Shown here in pieces: positions 2,153 to 8,463 of a stretch of DNA of 10,029 nucleotides. Source of the DNA: Acutalibacter sp. (GTDB lineage Bacteria > Bacillota > Clostridia > Oscillospirales > Acutalibacteraceae); the NCBI GenBank assembly GCA_022801475.1, contig JAAWSH010000037.1, forward strand, positions 1 through 10,029. The letters run 5' to 3'. The notes beneath the pieces were generated by a model that made no database searches, was not told the DNA's origin, and worked only from the letters and a program-made list of their open reading frames with translations. Numbering within the stretch: position 1 is the first letter of the stretch; every line of letters begins with the position of its first letter. The translations under genes and the position numbers were made by a program.

Positions 2153-2174
2153 CTTTGCGGTAAATCTTTGCGGT
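2153..2174. repeat. Tandem 9-mer in the yfcE leader overlapping its ribosome binding site
   Basis: CTTTGCGGT occurs at 2153-2161 and again at 2166-2174, separated by four bases. Read on the minus strand, the copies (ACCGCAAAG) lie just upstream of yfcE, and the proximal one supplies part of the AAAGGAG Shine-Dalgarno site. A short GGTCC/GGACC hairpin (2172-2184) adjoins the distal copy. Function is unknown; it could be chance. Confidence 0.4.
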
Positions 2175-2368
2175 CCTATGGACCTGTTTGAAAATAGCAG
2201 AATGCCGGATCTTTGCCCCAGAAAAAATATTGAGGGGACACAGCCCTGTTCAGGAGAAATCCATGGATCCCCCTCTGGTGATGGACGAGGGCTTGACAAT
2301 AGAGGAAACAAGGTCTTTTTGCCCAGAAGCGGTCCATTGCAAAAAGAAAACCGTGCGCTGCGCGCGGC

Positions 2369-2427
2369 TCCCCGTCAGCTCTTCCGATTCACGAGGATCT
2401 TTGACGGGGAAAGGGGCCAAAAGATCC
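2369..2427. repeat. Two interleaved inverted repeats (alternative stems or pseudoknot)
   Basis: TCCCCGTCA (2369-2377) is the perfect complement of TGACGGGGA (2402-2410), while GGATCTTT (2395-2402) is the perfect complement of AAAGATCC (2420-2427). The second stem begins inside the loop of the first and shares base 2402 with it, so as RNA they would form either competing hairpins or a pseudoknot. Confidence 0.45.
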
Positions 2428-2466
2428 CCCGGCAACCTGGGCATAAGAGTCCTGCATAGTAAGCGC

Positions 2467-2886: not shown

Positions 2887-2962
2887 GCTGGATTAGCTCA
2901 TTCGGTAGAGCACATCACTCGTAATGATGAGGTGGTCGGTTCGATTCCGACATCCAGCTCCA
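2887..2962 (+). tRNA. tRNA-Thr (anticodon CGU)
   Basis: A complete cloverleaf of 76 nt including an encoded CCA end. The acceptor stem is GCTGGAT with ATCCAGC, the D-stem GCTC with GAGC, the anticodon arm CATCA-CTCGTAA-TGATG, and the T-arm GTCGG-TTCGATT-CCGAC. The loop shows anticodon CGT, reading the threonine codon ACG. It has its own promoter and terminator, so it is a single-gene transcript. Its 3' end faces a recombinase remnant, consistent with past use as an integration target. Confidence 0.95.
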
Positions 2963-3121: not shown

Positions 3122-3343
3122 TTATTCCCCATTTCCCGCCGCTTCCAGAGTCTGCCGGAAAATATCCCCCGCCCGCCTGACGCTCTCCTCATCCGCATGG
3201 GGGTACATTCTCAAGGTTGTGGACTTGTCCGCGTGGCCCAGTTTTTCACTCACCGAGGCCCCGTCTGCTCCGTTAGTGATGGCTACATTGGCAAGCGGTG
3301 GCCCAGCCGCGCCGCTATAAACGCCGCAGCCCCGGCATGGCGG
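3122..3343 (-). pseudogene. Tyrosine recombinase (phage/ICE integrase) remnant, C-terminal tail only
   Basis: Minus-strand translation from the TAA at 3122-3124 backwards gives a tail with ITNGADGASVSEKLGHADK followed by STTLRMYPHADE, the LGH box and catalytic-tyrosine region of tyrosine recombinases. The family places the nucleophile in the TLRMY segment. The frame runs only 73 codons before an upstream in-frame stop (3344-3346), and the HxLRH box expected about a dozen residues before this segment is missing. A neighbouring frame has an LGH in the right place that could be its decayed relic. The core-binding and N-terminal domains are absent; full proteins are usually 300-400 residues. It points toward the 3' end of the tRNA-Thr gene, the usual position for an element integrated there. 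It cannot be a working recombinase. Confidence 0.82.
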
Positions 3344-3500
3344 TCAACTCCAGAGCCAGCTGATTGGGTGGGGCCCGCGCCTCTGGCACCGGCGGGGCCG
3401 GGCTGGGACCGGTCATTGCCAAGGAGACCGTTACCCCGCGCGGGGGTAGGCGGAATGCAAAGATGAAGCCGTACTGTTTACGGCCCCCCTGGCCGCCCAT
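3344..3500. other. GC-rich stretch with no supported gene
   Basis: This lies between the recombinase remnant and the van operator. A 61-codon minus-strand frame (3315-3500) crosses it but has no recognisable domain, and the GATAATCCTAAG before its ATG is not a good ribosome site. It probably contains decayed remains of the same integrated element. A short palindrome (TACCCCGCG at 3432-3440 with CGGGGGTA after it) is the only local structure noted. Confidence 0.4.
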
Positions 3501-3539
3501 CTTAGGATTATCTTAGGAAAGTCCCAACCTTAAGTTAAA
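3501..3539 (+). promoter_or_regulatory. Candidate response-regulator operator upstream of the van operon
   Basis: CTTAGGATTAT (3501-3511) is followed directly by CTTAGGAAAGT (3512-3522), and a related CTTAAGTTAAA lies at 3529-3539. Two head-to-tail sites with an 11-bp period are the usual footprint of an OmpR/PhoB-family dimer, the family to which VanR belongs. The array ends close to where the -35 element would be. The link to VanR is inference from context, since no regulator gene is in the window. Confidence 0.5.
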
Positions 3540-3555
3540 GAACCCAGCGCTTTTA

Positions 3556-3566
3556 TGTGGTATGAT
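3556..3566 (+). promoter_or_regulatory. Extended -10 promoter of the van operon
   Basis: TGTGGTATGAT contains a TATGAT -10 (3561-3566) preceded by the TGN extension (3558-3560). The position 17 bp upstream reads AAGAAC, which is not a -35 element. This fits an activator-dependent promoter served by the repeats just upstream. Transcription would start near 3573, giving a leader of about 150 nt. Confidence 0.5.
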
Positions 3567-3586
3567 GTCAGTAACGCATTTGAGAA

Positions 3587-3664
3587 CCGGCAGCTGCCAA
3601 TGCTGAAACAGGCGGCAGAGCTGCCGGCTCAACAAAGAAGATTGCTTCGAAGCATTGCTTCTTT
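3587..3664 (+). promoter_or_regulatory. Two leader hairpins ahead of the van operon
   Basis: CCGGCAGCT (3587-3595) is the perfect complement of AGCTGCCGG (3619-3627). A second hairpin pairs AAAGAAG (3634-3640) with CTTCTTT (3658-3664) and has a self-complementary GCTTCGAAGC near its tip. Neither is followed by a T-run, so simple attenuation is not shown; roles in mRNA stability or leader folding are possible. Confidence 0.45.
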
Positions 3665-3726
3665 GAACTGCGTGAACAATACGTACCAGTGGGAACGCGA
3701 ATTTTTTTACTTAGGAGGAATGACTT

Positions 3727-4542
3727 ATGACAGAGAAAACCATGGAGCGCAGGCGGAGGTACCAGCAGCGGCATAGGAGGAACACCATCGCCACTTGGAC
3801 CGTAGGCGCGGTTTGCGCGGCTATGCTGGTGTTTTTGGCGGCAATGGGGTGCATGGACTATGTGAAAAAGCTCCCGCCCCCGGAGAGCTCCGGCCTGCCC
3901 GGATTGGCTTTAGGAGAACCCAAACAGGAGACGCCCGTCCAGGATAATCCAATCAGCCAGCCCCAAGAGCCAACGGTCTACGAGGACGGCACAGACTGGA
4001 ACCTGCGGCTGGTGAACCGCTGGAATGCTGTCCCAGCGGGGTACAGTGTGAACCTCCAGGAACTGCCCGGCGGAGAACAGGTGGACGAGCGTATCTATGA
4101 GCCCTTAATGGAAATGCTGGAGGCCGCCAGAGAGGGCAACTGGGACGAAGTGCCCCGGGTGATCTCCGGCTACCGCACCCAGGAGGTGCAGCAGGGACTT
4201 TACGATGCCGAGGTGAACAAATACAAGTCCCAGGGGTATTCAGAGGAGGACGCAAAGGCCGAGGCTGGCAAGTGGGTGGCTGTCCCCGGCACCAGCGAGC
4301 ACCAGCTGGGATTGGCCATAGACGTGGAGGGAGCCACCTACGACGTGTTCCTCTGGCTGCAAGAGAACAGCTACAAGTACGGGTTCATTTTCCGGTATCC
4401 CGGCAGCAAAACGGACATTACCGGCACAGTGGAGGAGGTGTGGCACTACCGCTATGTGGGGGTGGAGGCCGCCACGCAGATGTATGAACAGGGGCTTTGC
4501 CTGGAGGAATATGTGGAAATGAAAGGCGGGGAAGAATCATGA
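3727..4542 (+). CDS. vanY: VanY-like membrane-anchored D,D-carboxypeptidase (first copy)
   Basis: A 271-residue M15B zinc peptidase that would remove the terminal D-Ala from peptidoglycan precursors outside the membrane. Residues 1-20 are strongly basic, about 22-42 form a single hydrophobic anchor, 46-85 a Pro/Gln-rich linker, and the catalytic domain starts near 90. Zinc and catalytic positions are visible: SEHQLGLAID (H192, D199) and EVWH (E237, H240), with SGYRT (R150) as the substrate arginine. AGGAGG at 3713-3718 lies eight bases before the ATG. It is the first gene of the operon, and its stop overlaps the next start (ATGA). It shares the unusual QGLCLEEY ending with the next copy and with VanXY. 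It may act on tetra/pentapeptide ends generally rather than only in resistance. Confidence 0.85.
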   Translation: MTEKTMERRRRYQQRHRRNTIATWTVGAVCAAMLVFLAAMGCMDYVKKLPPPESSGLPGLALGEPKQETPVQDNPISQPQEPTVYEDGTDWNLRLVNRWNAVPAGYSVNLQELPGGEQVDERIYEPLMEMLEAAREGNWDEVPRVISGYRTQEVQQGLYDAEVNKYKSQGYSEEDAKAEAGKWVAVPGTSEHQLGLAIDVEGATYDVFLWLQENSYKYGFIFRYPGSKTDITGTVEEVWHYRYVGVEAATQMYEQGLCLEEYVEMKGGEES

Positions 4543-5318
4543 CCATGGAAAACCGCAGAGATAGAATGACAAAAAAACACGCGGAACACAAGGAGCCTGC
4601 GCGCTTGAAAACAGAGTGGGTGGTAATAATGGCTGGCTTCTTGGGTCTAACGGCATGGCTAAGCGCTGTGCTGCTGCCGTGGGCGGGGCATAGGTTTTCC
4701 ACCAGTCTGGAGCCATCCCCGGCCTTTATGGAAGCACAGGAGGTGCCAGGCTGGAACCTGATCCTGGTGAACCCCTGGAACAGCCTGCCCGAGAGCTATC
4801 AGGTGCCGCTGCTGGATTTGGGCAGTGGGGAAAAGATAGACCGCCGCTGTTACGGGGCGCTTCAGGATATGCTGGACGGCTGCCGGGCCGCTGGGATGGA
4901 ACCGCTTATCTGTTCCGCGTACCGCAGCCAGGAGACCCAGGAACAGCTATTTGCGGATCAGGTGGAGCAGTGGACATCCCAGGGATATTCTTTGGAAGAG
5001 GCCAAGGCCGAGGCGGGAAAAGTGGTGGCTGTTCCCGGAACCAGCGAACACCAGCTAGGCTTGGCAGTAGATATTGTAGACATCACAAACCAGATGCTGA
5101 ACGAAAGCCAGGAGGACACGCCCGTGCAGCAGTGGCTTATGGAAAACAGCTGGAAATACGGCTTTATTCTGCGGTATCCCAACGGGAAGAGCGACGCGAC
5201 AGGAATCATATATGAGCCTTGGCACTACCGCTATGTGGGGGTGGAAGCCGCCACGCAGATGTATGAACAAGGGCTATGCCTGGAGGAATATTTGGAAACC
5301 AGGGAGGTTCTGCCATGA
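4539..5318 (+). CDS. vanY: VanY-like membrane-anchored D,D-carboxypeptidase (second copy)
   Basis: A 259-residue paralogue of the gene before it. Layout: basic N-terminus (1-25), one membrane anchor (about 27-48), a shorter linker, and the M15B catalytic domain from about 70. Motifs: SAYRS (R129), SEHQLGLAVD (H171, D178) and EPWH (E226, H229). Relative to the first copy it has a ~10-residue insertion (NQMLNESQED) after the D178 motif, near the active-site entrance, so the substrate range may differ. The start at 4539 is the ATGA overlap with the previous stop; a further ATG six bases on is possible. The last ~80 bases of the catalytic domain are nearly identical to the first copy at DNA level, mostly including synonymous positions, which suggests duplication with gene conversion. 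Confidence 0.83.
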   Translation: MTMENRRDRMTKKHAEHKEPARLKTEWVVIMAGFLGLTAWLSAVLLPWAGHRFSTSLEPSPAFMEAQEVPGWNLILVNPWNSLPESYQVPLLDLGSGEKIDRRCYGALQDMLDGCRAAGMEPLICSAYRSQETQEQLFADQVEQWTSQGYSLEEAKAEAGKVVAVPGTSEHQLGLAVDIVDITNQMLNESQEDTPVQQWLMENSWKYGFILRYPNGKSDATGIIYEPWHYRYVGVEAATQMYEQGLCLEEYLETREVLP

Positions 5319-6367
5319 AAGAAAAGTTAAACATCGCCGTGCTGTTCGGCGGCTGTTCGCCGGAATATGAGGTGTCCCTGCAATCGGCCGCGGCGGTGAT
5401 CCGGCATATGGACAGGGAGCGGTTTTTACCCGTCCCCATGGGCATCACCCGGCAGGGGGACTGGTACTGCTTTGGCGGGAGCATAGAGGAAATCGCTGCG
5501 GATACCTGGCACTTGGGGGAGACCCGCTTCCCGGTGGCAATCTCCCCGGACCGCACAAAGCCCACCCTATATCAATGTGCCGGAAACCATATCACCGAAC
5601 TCCACGTGGACGCCGCCTTTCCCGTGCTCCACGGAAAAAACGGCGAGGACGGCACAGTGCAGGGGCTGTTTGAACTAATGGGCATCCCGGTGGTGGGCTG
5701 CGGGACGCTGGCCTCGGCTTTGTGCATGGATAAATACCGGGCCCACCAGATCGTCCAGGCGGCGGGGATAGAAGCGCCCCGCGCTCTGGTGCTGGAGAGA
5801 GACGCGGGAATGGAATCCGCCCATGCCCTGGCAGAACAGCTTGGCTACCCACTGTTTGTCAAGCCTGTAAGGGCCGGATCGTCCTTTGGCATTACAAAGG
5901 TGGCAGACAGGAAAAGCCTGCCCGCCGCCGTGGCCCGCGCCGGCCAGTATGACAGGGAGATTATCCTGGAAGAGGCCATTCCCGGCTTCGAGGTGGGCTG
6001 CGCCGTTATGGGAAACGACAGTCTCACTGTGGGCGAGGTGGACGAGATCGAGCTGGCAGAGGGCTTTTTCGACTACACGGAAAAGTACACGCTGAAAACC
6101 TCCGCCATCCACACCCCGGCCCGCATCCCTGCCGCCACGGCCCGGCGCGTCAAAGACACGGCCCAAACCATTTATCGTGCCCTGGGGTGCGGAGGATTTG
6201 CCAGGGTGGATATGTTCCTGACCCCCGAGGGAAAAATCGTGTTCAACGAGGTAAACACCATTCCCGGCTTCACGGAACACAGCCGGTTTCCCGGTATGAT
6301 GAAAGCAGCCGGGCTGGAGTTGGGGCTGGTTGTCTCCCAGGTGATTGGATTGGCGGTGGAAAAATGA
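5315..6367 (+). CDS. vanG: D-alanine:D-serine ligase, VanG type
   Basis: A 350-residue ATP-grasp ligase that joins D-Ala to D-Ser for incorporation into the stem-peptide terminus. Motifs in order: FGGCSPEYEVSL (11-22), HGKNGEDGT (106-114), KPVRAGSSFG (183-192), FFDYTEKYTLKTS (251-263), RVDMF (297-301) and NEVNTIPGFT (311-320). The EKYTLK omega-loop is the VanG/VanC/VanE D-Ser signature; D-Ala:D-lactate ligases differ here. Length equals that of characterised VanG. The ATG at 5315 has AGGGAGG (5301-5307) upstream and overlaps the previous stop (ATGA). The genes downstream supply D-Ser and remove D-Ala-D-Ala, so the context agrees with the call. D-Ser specificity is a motif-based inference, but a strong one. 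Confidence 0.95.
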   Translation: MKEKLNIAVLFGGCSPEYEVSLQSAAAVIRHMDRERFLPVPMGITRQGDWYCFGGSIEEIAADTWHLGETRFPVAISPDRTKPTLYQCAGNHITELHVDAAFPVLHGKNGEDGTVQGLFELMGIPVVGCGTLASALCMDKYRAHQIVQAAGIEAPRALVLERDAGMESAHALAEQLGYPLFVKPVRAGSSFGITKVADRKSLPAAVARAGQYDREIILEEAIPGFEVGCAVMGNDSLTVGEVDEIELAEGFFDYTEKYTLKTSAIHTPARIPAATARRVKDTAQTIYRALGCGGFARVDMFLTPEGKIVFNEVNTIPGFTEHSRFPGMMKAAGLELGLVVSQVIGLAVEK

Positions 6368-6900
6368 ACCGTCTGATTTTAGTGAACCGCCAGTACCCCT
6401 ACACCATTCACGTCCGGCGGGACCTGGCCCCTGTTCTCCCCGCTTTCCCCCACATCCTTCTGGAGCGGGAGGCCGCTCATGCCCTTTCACGGCTCATGGA
6501 GGAACTGGATGGTTGGGCGCACATTGTTCCAGTAAGCGGCTGGCGCTCCTTTGCCCAGCAGCAGAGGATCTACCTGGATTCCCTCCGGGACAACGGGCGG
6601 GAATTCACAAAGCAGTTCGTGGCCCTGCCCGGCCACAGCGAACACCAGACCGGCCTTGCCATTGACCTGGGCCTACGGGGAGAGAATGTAGATTTCATCC
6701 GCCCCAACTTCCCCTATGAGGGCATCTGCCAGCGGTTCCGGGAACTGGCCCCGGCCTATGGCTTTATTGAGCGCTACCCGGCGGGGAAAGAGCGCGTCAC
6801 CGGCATTTCCCACGAGCCCTGGCACTTCCGCTATGTGGGCATACCCCACGGGGAGCACATCACCCGGCAGGGGCTTTGCCTGGAGGAATACCTGGCATGA
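6364..6900 (+). CDS. vanXY: VanXY-like D,D-peptidase (dipeptidase/carboxypeptidase)
   Basis: A 178-residue soluble M15 zinc peptidase without signal or membrane segment, the size class of VanXY. It would hydrolyse D-Ala-D-Ala made by the housekeeping ligase and trim pentapeptide precursors in the cytoplasm. Motifs: SGWRS (R61), SEHQTGLAID (H94, D101) and EPWHFRYVG (E151, H154). Its start overlaps the vanG stop (ATGA). The ending QGLCLEEYLA is shared with both VanY copies, and a 23-base stretch (6868-6890) is identical in DNA to 4489-4511 in the first vanY. GGAGG within those codons (6882-6886) lies ten bases before the next gene and probably serves as its ribosome binding site. The dipeptidase versus carboxypeptidase balance cannot be read from sequence. 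Confidence 0.88.
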   Translation: MNRLILVNRQYPYTIHVRRDLAPVLPAFPHILLEREAAHALSRLMEELDGWAHIVPVSGWRSFAQQQRIYLDSLRDNGREFTKQFVALPGHSEHQTGLAIDLGLRGENVDFIRPNFPYEGICQRFRELAPAYGFIERYPAGKERVTGISHEPWHFRYVGIPHGEHITRQGLCLEEYLA

Positions 6901-7367
6901 GTACACGGGAAAAGCTGGCCGCTTGGTCAAAGGGAGACTATATGGAAATGTATTGGGCGATGTTTTGGCGGCGGGAGCGGTGCCAGGGCAAAATCTGGCG
7001 GGATACCCTGACCTTTCTCCTGAACCGGATGGCCCGCCGCCACGGGGGCTACATTGGCAGCGGGGCCAAGTTCTGGGATGAGCCCCTGCTGCCCCACGGG
7101 CTGCACGGGGTGTATATCTCCCGGTACGCAAAAATCGGCGCGGGCTGCTGCATCTACCACAACGTCACCATTGGCGAGGTGGACGGCAAAGCGCCGGAAA
7201 TCGGCGAACACTGCCTGATCGGGGCCGGGGCCGTGCTGGTGGGCGGTATTAAAATTGGAGACTATGTGAAAATAGGCGCGGGCGCGGTGGTCCATACCGA
7301 TATTCCCAGCCACGCCACGGTGGTGGCCCAGCCCGCCCGAGTGATTGTAAGGGAGGACAAACGATGA
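6897..7367 (+). CDS. Hexapeptide-repeat acyltransferase, serine-acetyltransferase-like
   Basis: A 156-residue left-handed beta-helix acyltransferase. Residues 1-60 are helical and basic. Hexapeptide repeats start near 72 (GVYISRYAKIGAGCCIYHNVTIG) and continue to about 148 (APEIGEHCLIGAGAVLVGG, IKIGDYVKIGAGAVV, ATVVAQPARVI). The order and the final VVAQPARVI resemble the short serine O-acetyltransferase/CapG-like group; full-length CysE is about 100 residues longer. The acyl donor would be acetyl-CoA, but the acceptor is unknown. It sits between vanXY and the serine racemase with ATGA overlaps on both sides, so it belongs to the operon. A link to serine supply or to acetylation of a wall precursor is inference; no such gene is part of the standard vanC/E/G set I know. 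Confidence 0.75.
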   Translation: MSTREKLAAWSKGDYMEMYWAMFWRRERCQGKIWRDTLTFLLNRMARRHGGYIGSGAKFWDEPLLPHGLHGVYISRYAKIGAGCCIYHNVTIGEVDGKAPEIGEHCLIGAGAVLVGGIKIGDYVKIGAGAVVHTDIPSHATVVAQPARVIVREDKR

Positions 7368-8434
7368 TGGAGAAAAGCCGGGCCTGGATCGAAATGGACC
7401 GCGCCGCCCTGCGCCACAATGTGGAAGCCCTGCAAAAGCGCCTGCCACCGGGCTGCGCCTTAATGCCAGCGGTAAAGGCAAACGCCTATGGGCATGGGGC
7501 TGTGTCCATCGCCAGGGAGTGTCAAACAATGGGCGTGGACGCTTTTTGCGCAGCCACGGTGGAGGAGGGCGTCGAGCTGCGGGAAAACGGCATACGCGGC
7601 ACAATTTTAGTACTGGGCTGGACAGACCCACGGGCGGCTGTGCAGCTGCATGAGCACAAGCTGACCCAGACAGTGGTGGGCCTTGCCTATGCCCAAGAGC
7701 TGGACCGGCTGGGAAAGCCCATCCAGGTACACGTCAAAATTGACACCGGGATGCACCGGCTGGGCCTGCACTGGGAGGACCTGGAGGGGATGGCGGGCAT
7801 CTTTTCCCGCGAAAACCTGCGGGTCACCGGGGCCTTCACCCACATCTGCGCGGACAGCATGGCAAAGGAGCAGGGGCGGCGGTTTTACCGGGCTGTGGCG
7901 GGGCTGAAGGGACATGGATATAACATCCCCAAGATCCATCTGCTGGCAAGCCAGGGGCTTATCAACCACCCGGAACTAGGCGGGAACTACGCCCGTGTCG
8001 GACTGGCCCTGTACGGCGTTGGCGCCCCGGAATTGCGGCCTGTCCTCTCCCTAAAAGCCAGGGTGGCACAGGTTCGGGAACTGCCTGCCGGGGAGGGCAC
8101 AGGGTATGAATTGCGGTTTACCTCCCAGCGGCCCAGCCGGATCGCCGTGCTCGCCATCGGCTATGGGGACGGCCTGCCCCGCTCCCTCTCCTGCGGCGCG
8201 GGGCGCGTGCTGCTCCACGGCAAAAGAGCGCCCATTGCCGGGCTGATCTGCATGGACCAGACGCTGGTGGACGTGACGGGCCTTCCCCATGTGTCGCCGG
8301 GCGACACGGCTGTGTTGATTGGGAAAAGCGGCGGGTCAGAAATCACCGCCGCCGAGATGGCGGAACAAGCGGGGACGATCCCTAATGAGATTTTCAGCCG
8401 GTTGGGCAGGCGGCTGGGGCGTCATCTGTGTTAA
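7364..8434 (+). CDS. vanT: Stand-alone VanT-type serine/alanine racemase
   Basis: A 356-residue PLP racemase of the Alr fold: PLP lysine in VKANAYGHG (K38), KIDTGMHRLG (R131), ARVGLALYG (211-218), the second catalytic base Y268 in IGYGDG, and ICMDQTLVDVT. Near the C-terminus TIPNEI places Asn (N341) where alanine racemases have Tyr (Tyr354 of Geobacillus Alr, TINYE), aligned by eye. Asn at this site is the known VanT feature that admits serine, so D-Ser production is likely. Known VanT proteins are about 700 residues with a membrane-embedded N-terminal half; that half is absent here, so the enzyme should be cytosolic. GGGAGG (7351-7356) precedes the ATG at 7364, which overlaps the previous stop; a second ATG follows directly. 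Last gene of the operon. Confidence 0.85.
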   Translation: MMEKSRAWIEMDRAALRHNVEALQKRLPPGCALMPAVKANAYGHGAVSIARECQTMGVDAFCAATVEEGVELRENGIRGTILVLGWTDPRAAVQLHEHKLTQTVVGLAYAQELDRLGKPIQVHVKIDTGMHRLGLHWEDLEGMAGIFSRENLRVTGAFTHICADSMAKEQGRRFYRAVAGLKGHGYNIPKIHLLASQGLINHPELGGNYARVGLALYGVGAPELRPVLSLKARVAQVRELPAGEGTGYELRFTSQRPSRIAVLAIGYGDGLPRSLSCGAGRVLLHGKRAPIAGLICMDQTLVDVTGLPHVSPGDTAVLIGKSGGSEITAAEMAEQAGTIPNEIFSRLGRRLGRHLC

Positions 8435-8463
8435 ACCATCTTTGCAGAAAGCAGCAAACCAAC

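What the first reader, a model, noticed from the sequence alone, without database searches (positions are those of the whole stretch)
3727..8434. VanG-type D-Ser resistance operon with a non-standard gene set
The ligase carries the D-Ser-type EKYTLK loop, and VanXY and a VanT-type racemase are present. The order vanY-vanY-vanG-vanXY-acyltransferase-racemase differs from the vanC, vanE and vanG clusters I know: two VanY genes lead, an acyltransferase is inserted, and vanU/vanW and the vanR/vanS pair are not beside the structural genes. It could be an intrinsic system of a gut commensal, and an ancestor or relative of mobile vanG elements.
Basis: partly seen in the sequence, partly recalled or inferred. 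Interest (0 to 1): 0.78.

Follow-up and report, generated by a model that had tools for sequence, protein, structure and literature searches.

The report
VanG operon with swapped acyltransferase
A gut bacterium carries a vancomycin-resistance gene set in which the membrane half of one enzyme is missing and a small unrelated acetyl-transferring enzyme sits in its stead, and relatives show the same exchange, which hints at what that puzzling membrane half does.

Summary
The six-gene operon is real (3727-8434). It is vanG-type: ligase 536 bits (VanG cut-off 495), racemase 474 (cut-off 460). It is not intrinsic: 4 of 29 genus genomes carry a VanG-type ligase, and the sister genome has an empty site here. 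vanR/vanS survive beside it only as remnants; an intact orphan pair lies on another contig of the bin. The "acyltransferase" is the notable part. It has a serine-acetyltransferase fold but fails the CysE and EpsC cut-offs. VanT racemases usually carry a membrane acyltransferase-3 (AT3) domain of unsettled function. In 21 of 21 operons with the soluble gene AT3 is absent; of 90 loci, 14 have the soluble gene, 65 AT3, 11 neither, 0 both. Oscillibacter valericigenes and Muricomes intestini differ by this swap inside about 85% identical DNA. Best reading: two unrelated acyltransferases fill one role, so AT3 acts as an acyltransferase, not merely a serine transporter. The acceptor is unknown, the step is dispensable in some loci, and the tree-corrected test is not significant.

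The parts
2887..2962 (+). tRNA-Thr (CGT), chromosomal landing site beside the operon
   Evidence: ARAGORN; also in the empty site L185
3125..3295 (-). C-terminal remnant resembling a tyrosine integrase (weak, below Pfam's cut-off)
   Evidence: PF00589 E 0.008, 16.4 bits, cut-off 27.1; frame shown
3300..3343 (+). vanR remnant
   Evidence: 86% over 44 bases to L004 3790-3833, which lies inside intact vanR; alignment
3364..3505 (+). vanS C-terminal remnant, frame-broken
   Evidence: 76.7% over 215 columns (3373-3577) to the L004 vanS end and the DNA after it; tblastn E 1e-5
3500..3518 (+). probable VanR operator: two CTTAGGA boxes 11 bp apart, conserved with L004
   Evidence: a -10-like TATGAT follows at about 3561 (alignment); the sigma-70 consensus scan found no promoter
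3575..3712 (+). hairpin-rich leader before vanY1, much of it absent in L004
   Evidence: fold of 3575-3727 z -3.0; alignment; matches only itself in the bin
3727..4542 (+). vanY1, D,D-carboxypeptidase with a probable N-terminal membrane anchor
   Evidence: PF02557; NCBIfam vanY_BG 312 bits (cut-off 400); anchor read from the sequence, no predictor run
4539..5318 (+). vanY2, tandem paralogue of vanY1
   Evidence: PF02557; vanY_BG 220 bits (cut-off 400); repeats D1/D2
5315..6367 (+). vanG, D-Ala-D-Ser ligase
   Evidence: NF000091 536 bits, cut-off 495; 4fu0 E 6e-127
6364..6900 (+). vanXY, D,D-dipeptidase/carboxypeptidase
   Evidence: 4f78 E 5.5e-63; NF000149 210 bits (cut-off 500)
6897..7367 (+). 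soluble left-handed beta-helix acyltransferase of serine-acetyltransferase fold, standing in for the AT3 domain
7364..8434 (+). vanT catalytic half only (serine racemase, no AT3 domain)
   Evidence: NF033131 474 bits, cut-off 460; 4ecl E 5.5e-102; no PF01757
8475..9716 (-). chromosomal GHL10 gene, right flank of the insertion
   Evidence: PF02638; 97.6% aa to L185

Best explanation
This is a horizontally acquired vanG-type D-Ala-D-Ser operon stranded beside tRNA-Thr. VanT's catalytic half makes D-Ser, VanG joins D-Ala to D-Ser, and VanXY with two VanY enzymes removes D-Ala-D-Ala and D-Ala-ended precursors, so vancomycin finds a weaker target (inferred from the families). It belongs to a variant in which the membrane AT3 domain of VanT is absent and a stand-alone soluble acyltransferase of serine-acetyltransferase fold is encoded in the same operon instead. 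The mutual exclusion in the loci examined and one DNA-level swap are shown. That both use acyl-CoA to acylate the same pathway-linked acceptor is inferred. Local vanRS is broken; regulation in trans by the orphan vanRS pair on contig C136 through the conserved operator is inferred.
For: Family scores. AT3 absent in 21 of 21 operons with the soluble gene. 90 loci: 14 soluble, 65 AT3, 11 neither, 0 both; Fisher 4.9e-10, not corrected for descent. Searches with the soluble protein alone found 17 distinct genomes with hits: 10 of 10 close ones (E <= 2e-53; 9 of 9 without the window's own) lie in vanG operons, 0 of 7 remote ones near van genes in the fetched stretch. In 4 of 21 the gene is upstream of the ligase, not in the AT3 slot, and AT3 is still absent. 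L011 and L013 match at about 85% DNA on both sides of the swapped block. Racemase tree: 8 label changes, at least 4 forced by supported branches. VanT's AT3 keeps an R/K-X10-H motif in 41 of 43, with Arg at the aligned column in 33, Lys in 9 (R-X10-H motif from PMC9833829, passages). The soluble enzyme keeps its putative catalytic His in 21 of 21. Separate canonical CysE above the cut-off in 5 of 6 operon-bearing genomes tested.
Against: 11 of 90 loci lack both enzymes, so neither is indispensable. The phylogeny-aware pair test has only 4 supported pairs; 2 or 3 go the expected way, the rest do not differ, median p 0.25, so correlation beyond shared descent is not significant. AT3 enzymes deliver acyl groups to an extracytosolic acceptor (PMC12423673 abstract), which a soluble enzyme without a secretion signal would not reach, so the acceptor need not be the same. 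The acceptor is unknown. A close homologue, P0001, lacks the putative catalytic His. An AT3 gene elsewhere in these genomes was not searched for. The bin is 64% complete, and contig C136 could be mis-binned.
Confidence: 0.6

Rival explanations
1. The soluble gene is a serine-metabolism enzyme (an L- or D-serine O-acetyltransferase) that tunes serine supply; AT3 is a serine importer. The two are alternative ways to manage serine for the racemase, with no shared acyl-transfer role.
For: Closest fold is serine acetyltransferase; it lies next to a serine racemase; serine transport by AT3 has been proposed (PMC9558356 passage); a basic residue is kept at the SAT Arg192 position in 19 of 21.
Against: It fails CysE (71.6 of 210.65 bits) and EpsC (86.6 of 150) cut-offs; at two SAT serine-binding positions (roles recalled) it has Pro and Ala in 21 of 21; a separate CysE is over the cut-off in 5 of 6 genomes; R/K-X10-H is kept in 41 of 43 VanT AT3 domains.
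Confidence: 0.2
2. The two genes have unrelated roles. The exclusion reflects a few old recombination events and shared descent: AT3 is often lost, and the acyltransferase hitch-hikes in some lineages.
For: 11 of 90 loci lack both; the pair test is not significant after tree correction.
Against: 0 of 90 with both; at least 4 supported switches; AT3 also absent in the 4 operons where the gene sits upstream of the ligase; 10 of 10 close homologues, the window's included, in van operons; dN/dS 0.14.
Confidence: 0.25
3. The acyltransferase modifies the glycopeptide itself, or a rival antibiotic, like CatB/Vat xenobiotic acetyltransferases.
For: Some hexapeptide acyltransferases inactivate drugs (recalled); weak hits to CatB and Vat(I) models.
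Against: CatB and Vat(I) hits score 23.7 and 22.2 bits against cut-offs of 350 and 415; it would not explain the exclusion of AT3.
Confidence: 0.03

Closest known systems
vanG operon of Enterococcus faecalis BM4518 (regulatory vanURS; resistance genes vanY, W, G, XY, T; PMC4405338, passages)
   Same: VanG-type ligase, VanXY, VanT racemase, VanY, D-Ser type
   Different: there vanU and vanW are present, VanT is membrane bound, vanRS is adjacent; here AT3 is absent, an acyltransferase is added, there are two VanY, and vanRS is remnant
vanL (known here only from NCBIfam model names: separate VanT-L membrane and catalytic subunits, NF000033 and NF033133)
   Same: catalytic racemase as its own protein
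   Different: vanL keeps the membrane part as a separate gene; here it is absent and a non-homologous soluble acyltransferase is present
Serine acetyltransferase CysE/EpsC
   Different: below family cut-offs; two serine-binding positions replaced; shorter N-terminal part
Sister copy in L004 = G002 (Oscillospiraceae bacterium, contig MGBC000120.35)
   Same: same six genes in the same order, 84% ligase identity
   Different: intact vanRS directly upstream; lies among T4CP, group II intron and serine recombinase genes

Membership tests
vanG-type D-Ala-D-Ser operon | VanG-type ligase above the curated cut-off | tested here: met
   536 vs 495 bits
vanG-type D-Ala-D-Ser operon | VanT serine racemase catalytic domain | tested here: met
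   NF033131 474 vs 460
vanG-type D-Ala-D-Ser operon | VanXY dipeptidase/carboxypeptidase | tested here: inconclusive
   best solved relative is 4f78 (E 5.5e-63), but 210 vs 500 bits for vanXY_G and 203 vs 250 for vanXY; SEHQ and E-x-WH motifs present
vanG-type D-Ala-D-Ser operon | membrane AT3 domain of VanT, fused or split | tested here: not met
   no PF01757 in the racemase; no VanT-AT3 HMM hit in the window
vanG-type D-Ala-D-Ser operon | adjacent vanR/vanS | tested here: not met
   only remnants; orphan pair on C136
vanG-type D-Ala-D-Ser operon | vanU and vanW | tested here: inconclusive
   no room between the overlapping six genes; no dedicated profile search of the other ORFs or of the rest of the bin
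vanG-type D-Ala-D-Ser operon | precursors ending in D-Ala-D-Ser; resistance phenotype | not testable with these tools
   needs mass spectrometry and MIC
Serine acetyltransferase (CysE/EpsC) | score above curated cut-off | tested here: not met
   71.6 of 210.65 and 86.6 of 150 bits
Serine acetyltransferase (CysE/EpsC) | SAT fold | tested here: met
Serine acetyltransferase (CysE/EpsC) | serine-binding Asp157, Arg192, His193 (E. coli numbering and roles recalled) | tested here: not met
   Asp157 is Pro and His193 is Ala in 21 of 21; Arg192 is Lys or Arg in 19 of 21 and Gln in 2; placed by alignment only

The most novel reading that the evidence does not exclude
The AT3 domain of VanT is a working acyltransferase, not a serine transporter, and vanG-type resistance includes an acylation step on a metabolite reachable from the cytosol (for example D-Ser or a D-Ser-ended wall precursor). 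In some Clostridia the step is done by a soluble enzyme of serine-acetyltransferase fold that has replaced AT3 several times independently.
Probability: 0.33. Interest if true: 0.85.

Novelty: new variant of a known kind. Interest (0 to 1): 0.6.

Why it matters
The role of VanT's AT3 domain is described as unknown (PMC9558356, passages) or unconsidered (PMC12423673, passages); the latter says that laboratory and clinical mutations for high-level resistance fall in it, although the C. difficile evolution study could not rebuild the resistance by introducing its vanT mutations one by one (PMC11326576, passages). A natural replacement by a small soluble enzyme gives a tractable handle: it can be purified and assayed, and two named species differ by the swap. 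If the acylation step is real, D-Ser-type glycopeptide resistance has a component that I found no report of anyone assaying (searches listed under Tried and rejected).

Tried and rejected
Housekeeping Ddl for the ligase: rejected. The acyltransferase as the cell's cysteine-pathway SAT: made unlikely by a separate CysE over the cut-off in 5 of 6 genomes (in the sixth, G811, the best match is 161 bits of 210.65). Purely positional exclusion (the gene occupying the AT3 slot): weakened, since 4 of 21 operons have the gene upstream of the ligase. Viral contigs: 10 loci, best 45% identity, not followed. Plasmids: all 572 matching records for the acyltransferase under 60% identity, the 15 listed 32-41%, not followed; plasmid-borne VanG-type ligases up to 58%, neighbours not read. 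A consensus promoter scan found nothing at the operator. The acyltransferase gene tree mixes the van-linked copies with homologues of unknown context, so it could not show that the whole clade is van-linked. L039 has another hexapeptide gene 7.4 kb from a ligase with fused AT3-VanT; it scores 53 bits with the HMM against more than 230 for the operon copies scored and was not counted.

Literature: searches gave no listed title or abstract start describing a soluble acyltransferase in vanG operons (two returned no papers; 18 and 25 list 20 of 57 and 20 of 25). Passages were read in PMC12423673, PMC9558356, PMC5073890, PMC4405338, PMC9833829 and PMC11326576 and the first part of PMC8431993; all other hits were seen as listings. 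Subscription journals are largely not held.

Rows dropped before the 90-locus count: 13 of 103 loci without a racemase hit over 150 bits (L008, L010, L040, L043, L044, L051, L068, L075, L083, L136, L147, L149, and L154, the housekeeping Ddl). None of the first twelve had the soluble gene in the operon; L043, L044, L083 and L136 have AT3, two of them cut by the contig end. L037 counts as 'neither' although its VanT keeps a weak AT3 match of 37 bits in an N-terminal stretch of about 120 residues. L146, L148 and L213 were left out of the careful tree.
Full report
What is there. The window is the whole 10,029-base contig C24 of a 64% complete bin. The six genes at 3727-8434 are intact and joined by five ATGA overlaps. 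The ligase passes the curated VanG model (536 vs 495 bits) and the racemase passes the VanT-G catalytic model (474 vs 460). Nearest solved relatives are 4fu0, 4f78 and 4ecl; that these are VanG-type proteins of E. faecalis is recalled. VanY1, VanY2 and VanXY fall below their curated cut-offs, so they are relatives, not named members. All six genes are under purifying selection against the sister copy L004 (dN/dS 0.08-0.19).

Acquired, not intrinsic. A VanG-type ligase (57-100% identity to the window's) occurs in 4 of 29 genus genomes (G000, G002, G010, G025), while all 29 have a match at E <= 1e-60, the rest at 40-45% identity as expected of a housekeeping ligase. In the family sample 21 of 398 genomes have a match at E <= 1e-100. 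The sister G002 has the same flanks (93% on both sides; 87.7% over 389 columns around the tRNA) with an empty site: window 3144-8461 is replaced there by about 255 bases. G002's own van copy lies elsewhere, between a conjugation coupling-protein gene carrying a group II intron and two serine recombinase genes. The operon is more diverged (dS 0.42-0.96) than the flanking GHL10 gene (dS 0.23). The left edge abuts tRNA-Thr and a fragment that weakly resembles an integrase end (E 0.008, below cut-off).

Regulators. Beside the operon only a vanR fragment and the end of vanS remain. Between them and vanY1 the putative operator, two CTTAGGA boxes 11 bp apart, is conserved with L004 and similar in L011. 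It was not found beside vanRS on C136, and the consensus scan found no promoter here. An intact vanR-vanS pair lies on contig C136 without structural van genes. Its VanR passes the curated model (365 vs 350 bits); its VanS (346 vs 400) does not, nor does the sister's VanS. Control in trans is a plausible inference; the pair could also be mis-binned.

The swap. From 80 loci found by ligase similarity I tabulated the soluble gene and the AT3 domain, using an HMM made from the N-termini of 43 fused VanT proteins. Pfam confirms AT3 (PF01757) in the fused L013 and the split L019, and its absence in L011. With the family loci added and 13 of 103 dropped for want of a racemase hit, 90 loci give 14 soluble, 65 AT3, 11 neither, 0 both. 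Fisher p is 4.9e-10 without correction for descent. As a second sample, searches with the soluble protein alone in family (4 of 398), class (3 of 391), order (13 of 365) and phylum (1 of 378) samples, which overlap, gave 17 distinct genomes with hits. The 10 close hits (E <= 2e-53), one of them the window's own, all lie in vanG operons without AT3; one of these operons, L213, has its racemase in pieces. The 7 remote hits (E 2e-26 to 5e-33) have no van gene in the fetched stretch, some of it short. Together with the ligase-based loci there are 21 operons with the soluble gene and none has AT3. In 17 of 21 the gene lies between ligase/vanXY and vanT; in 4 (L053, L063, L073, L210) it lies upstream of the ligase.

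Independence. On the careful racemase tree of 94 rows the soluble-gene label needs 8 changes (bootstrap 7-8), at least 4 forced by supported branches. The phylogeny-aware pair test offers only 4 supported pairs: none contradicts, 2 or 3 go the expected way, median p 0.25, so it is not significant. The clearest single case is L011 (O. valericigenes, soluble gene) against L013 (M. intestini, AT3): 85-88% DNA identity before and 85% after a block of about 0.6 kb in one and 1.1 kb in the other that holds the two different acyltransferases.

What it means. A review states that the role of AT3 in VanT is unknown and that serine transport was proposed (PMC9558356, passages). A 2025 paper argues from fold that the AT3 part of VanT has an unconsidered function, and says that high-level resistance mutations fall in it (PMC12423673, passages); against this, the C. 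difficile study could not rebuild vanT-mediated resistance from single vanT mutations (PMC11326576, passages). The R-X10-H motif described as absolutely conserved in AT3 enzymes (PMC9833829, passages) appears as R/K-X10-H in 41 of 43 VanT AT3 domains here; at the aligned column 33 have Arg, 9 Lys and 1 Gly. Replacement of that domain by a non-homologous acyltransferase points the same way: the shared property would be acyl-CoA chemistry. Which acceptor, and whether it is the same, is not shown. Operons with neither enzyme show that the step is optional.

Membership and novelty. It works like a vanG operon, and its ligase and racemase meet the VanG and VanT-G models, but two usual features (AT3 domain, adjacent vanRS) were tested and not met, so I file it as a new variant of a known kind. 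I found no description of this variant, within a library that lacks most subscription journals.

Noticed in passing
L184 1067-1232, 3783-3952; window about 2180-2420: MITE-like repeats: 34 matches to window 2160-2450 in the bin, the window's own included, with 40 of 62 candidates scored; related copies flank the orphan vanRS pair on C136.
   Followed up: partly
window 3575-3727: Two strong hairpins in the vanY1 leader (z -3.0), largely absent from the sister copy; could be an insertion or an attenuator.
   Followed up: partly
window 4441-4519 and 5220-5298: The 3' ends of vanY1 and vanY2 are 95% identical over 79 bases although longer stretches around them are 76-78% alike, as if homogenised by gene conversion.
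   Followed up: no
L013 9044-11872: In Muricomes intestini the vanXY reading frame is interrupted by about 2 kb of other DNA.
   Followed up: no
L034: A vanG-vanT locus on a contig labelled Alistipes (Bacteroidota), perhaps mis-binned.
   Followed up: no
literature, PMC11326576 (passages): In C. difficile evolved under vancomycin, one clone with a vanT mutation also carried mutations affecting maa, a putative maltose O-acetyltransferase; a weak, possibly chance link to acetylation.
   Followed up: no
L012, L014, L022, L046, L064, L067, L069, L078, L140, L148: vanG-type loci with a catalytic-only VanT and neither acyltransferase; five of them (L012, L022, L046, L067, L069) also lack a vanXY hit.
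   Followed up: partly
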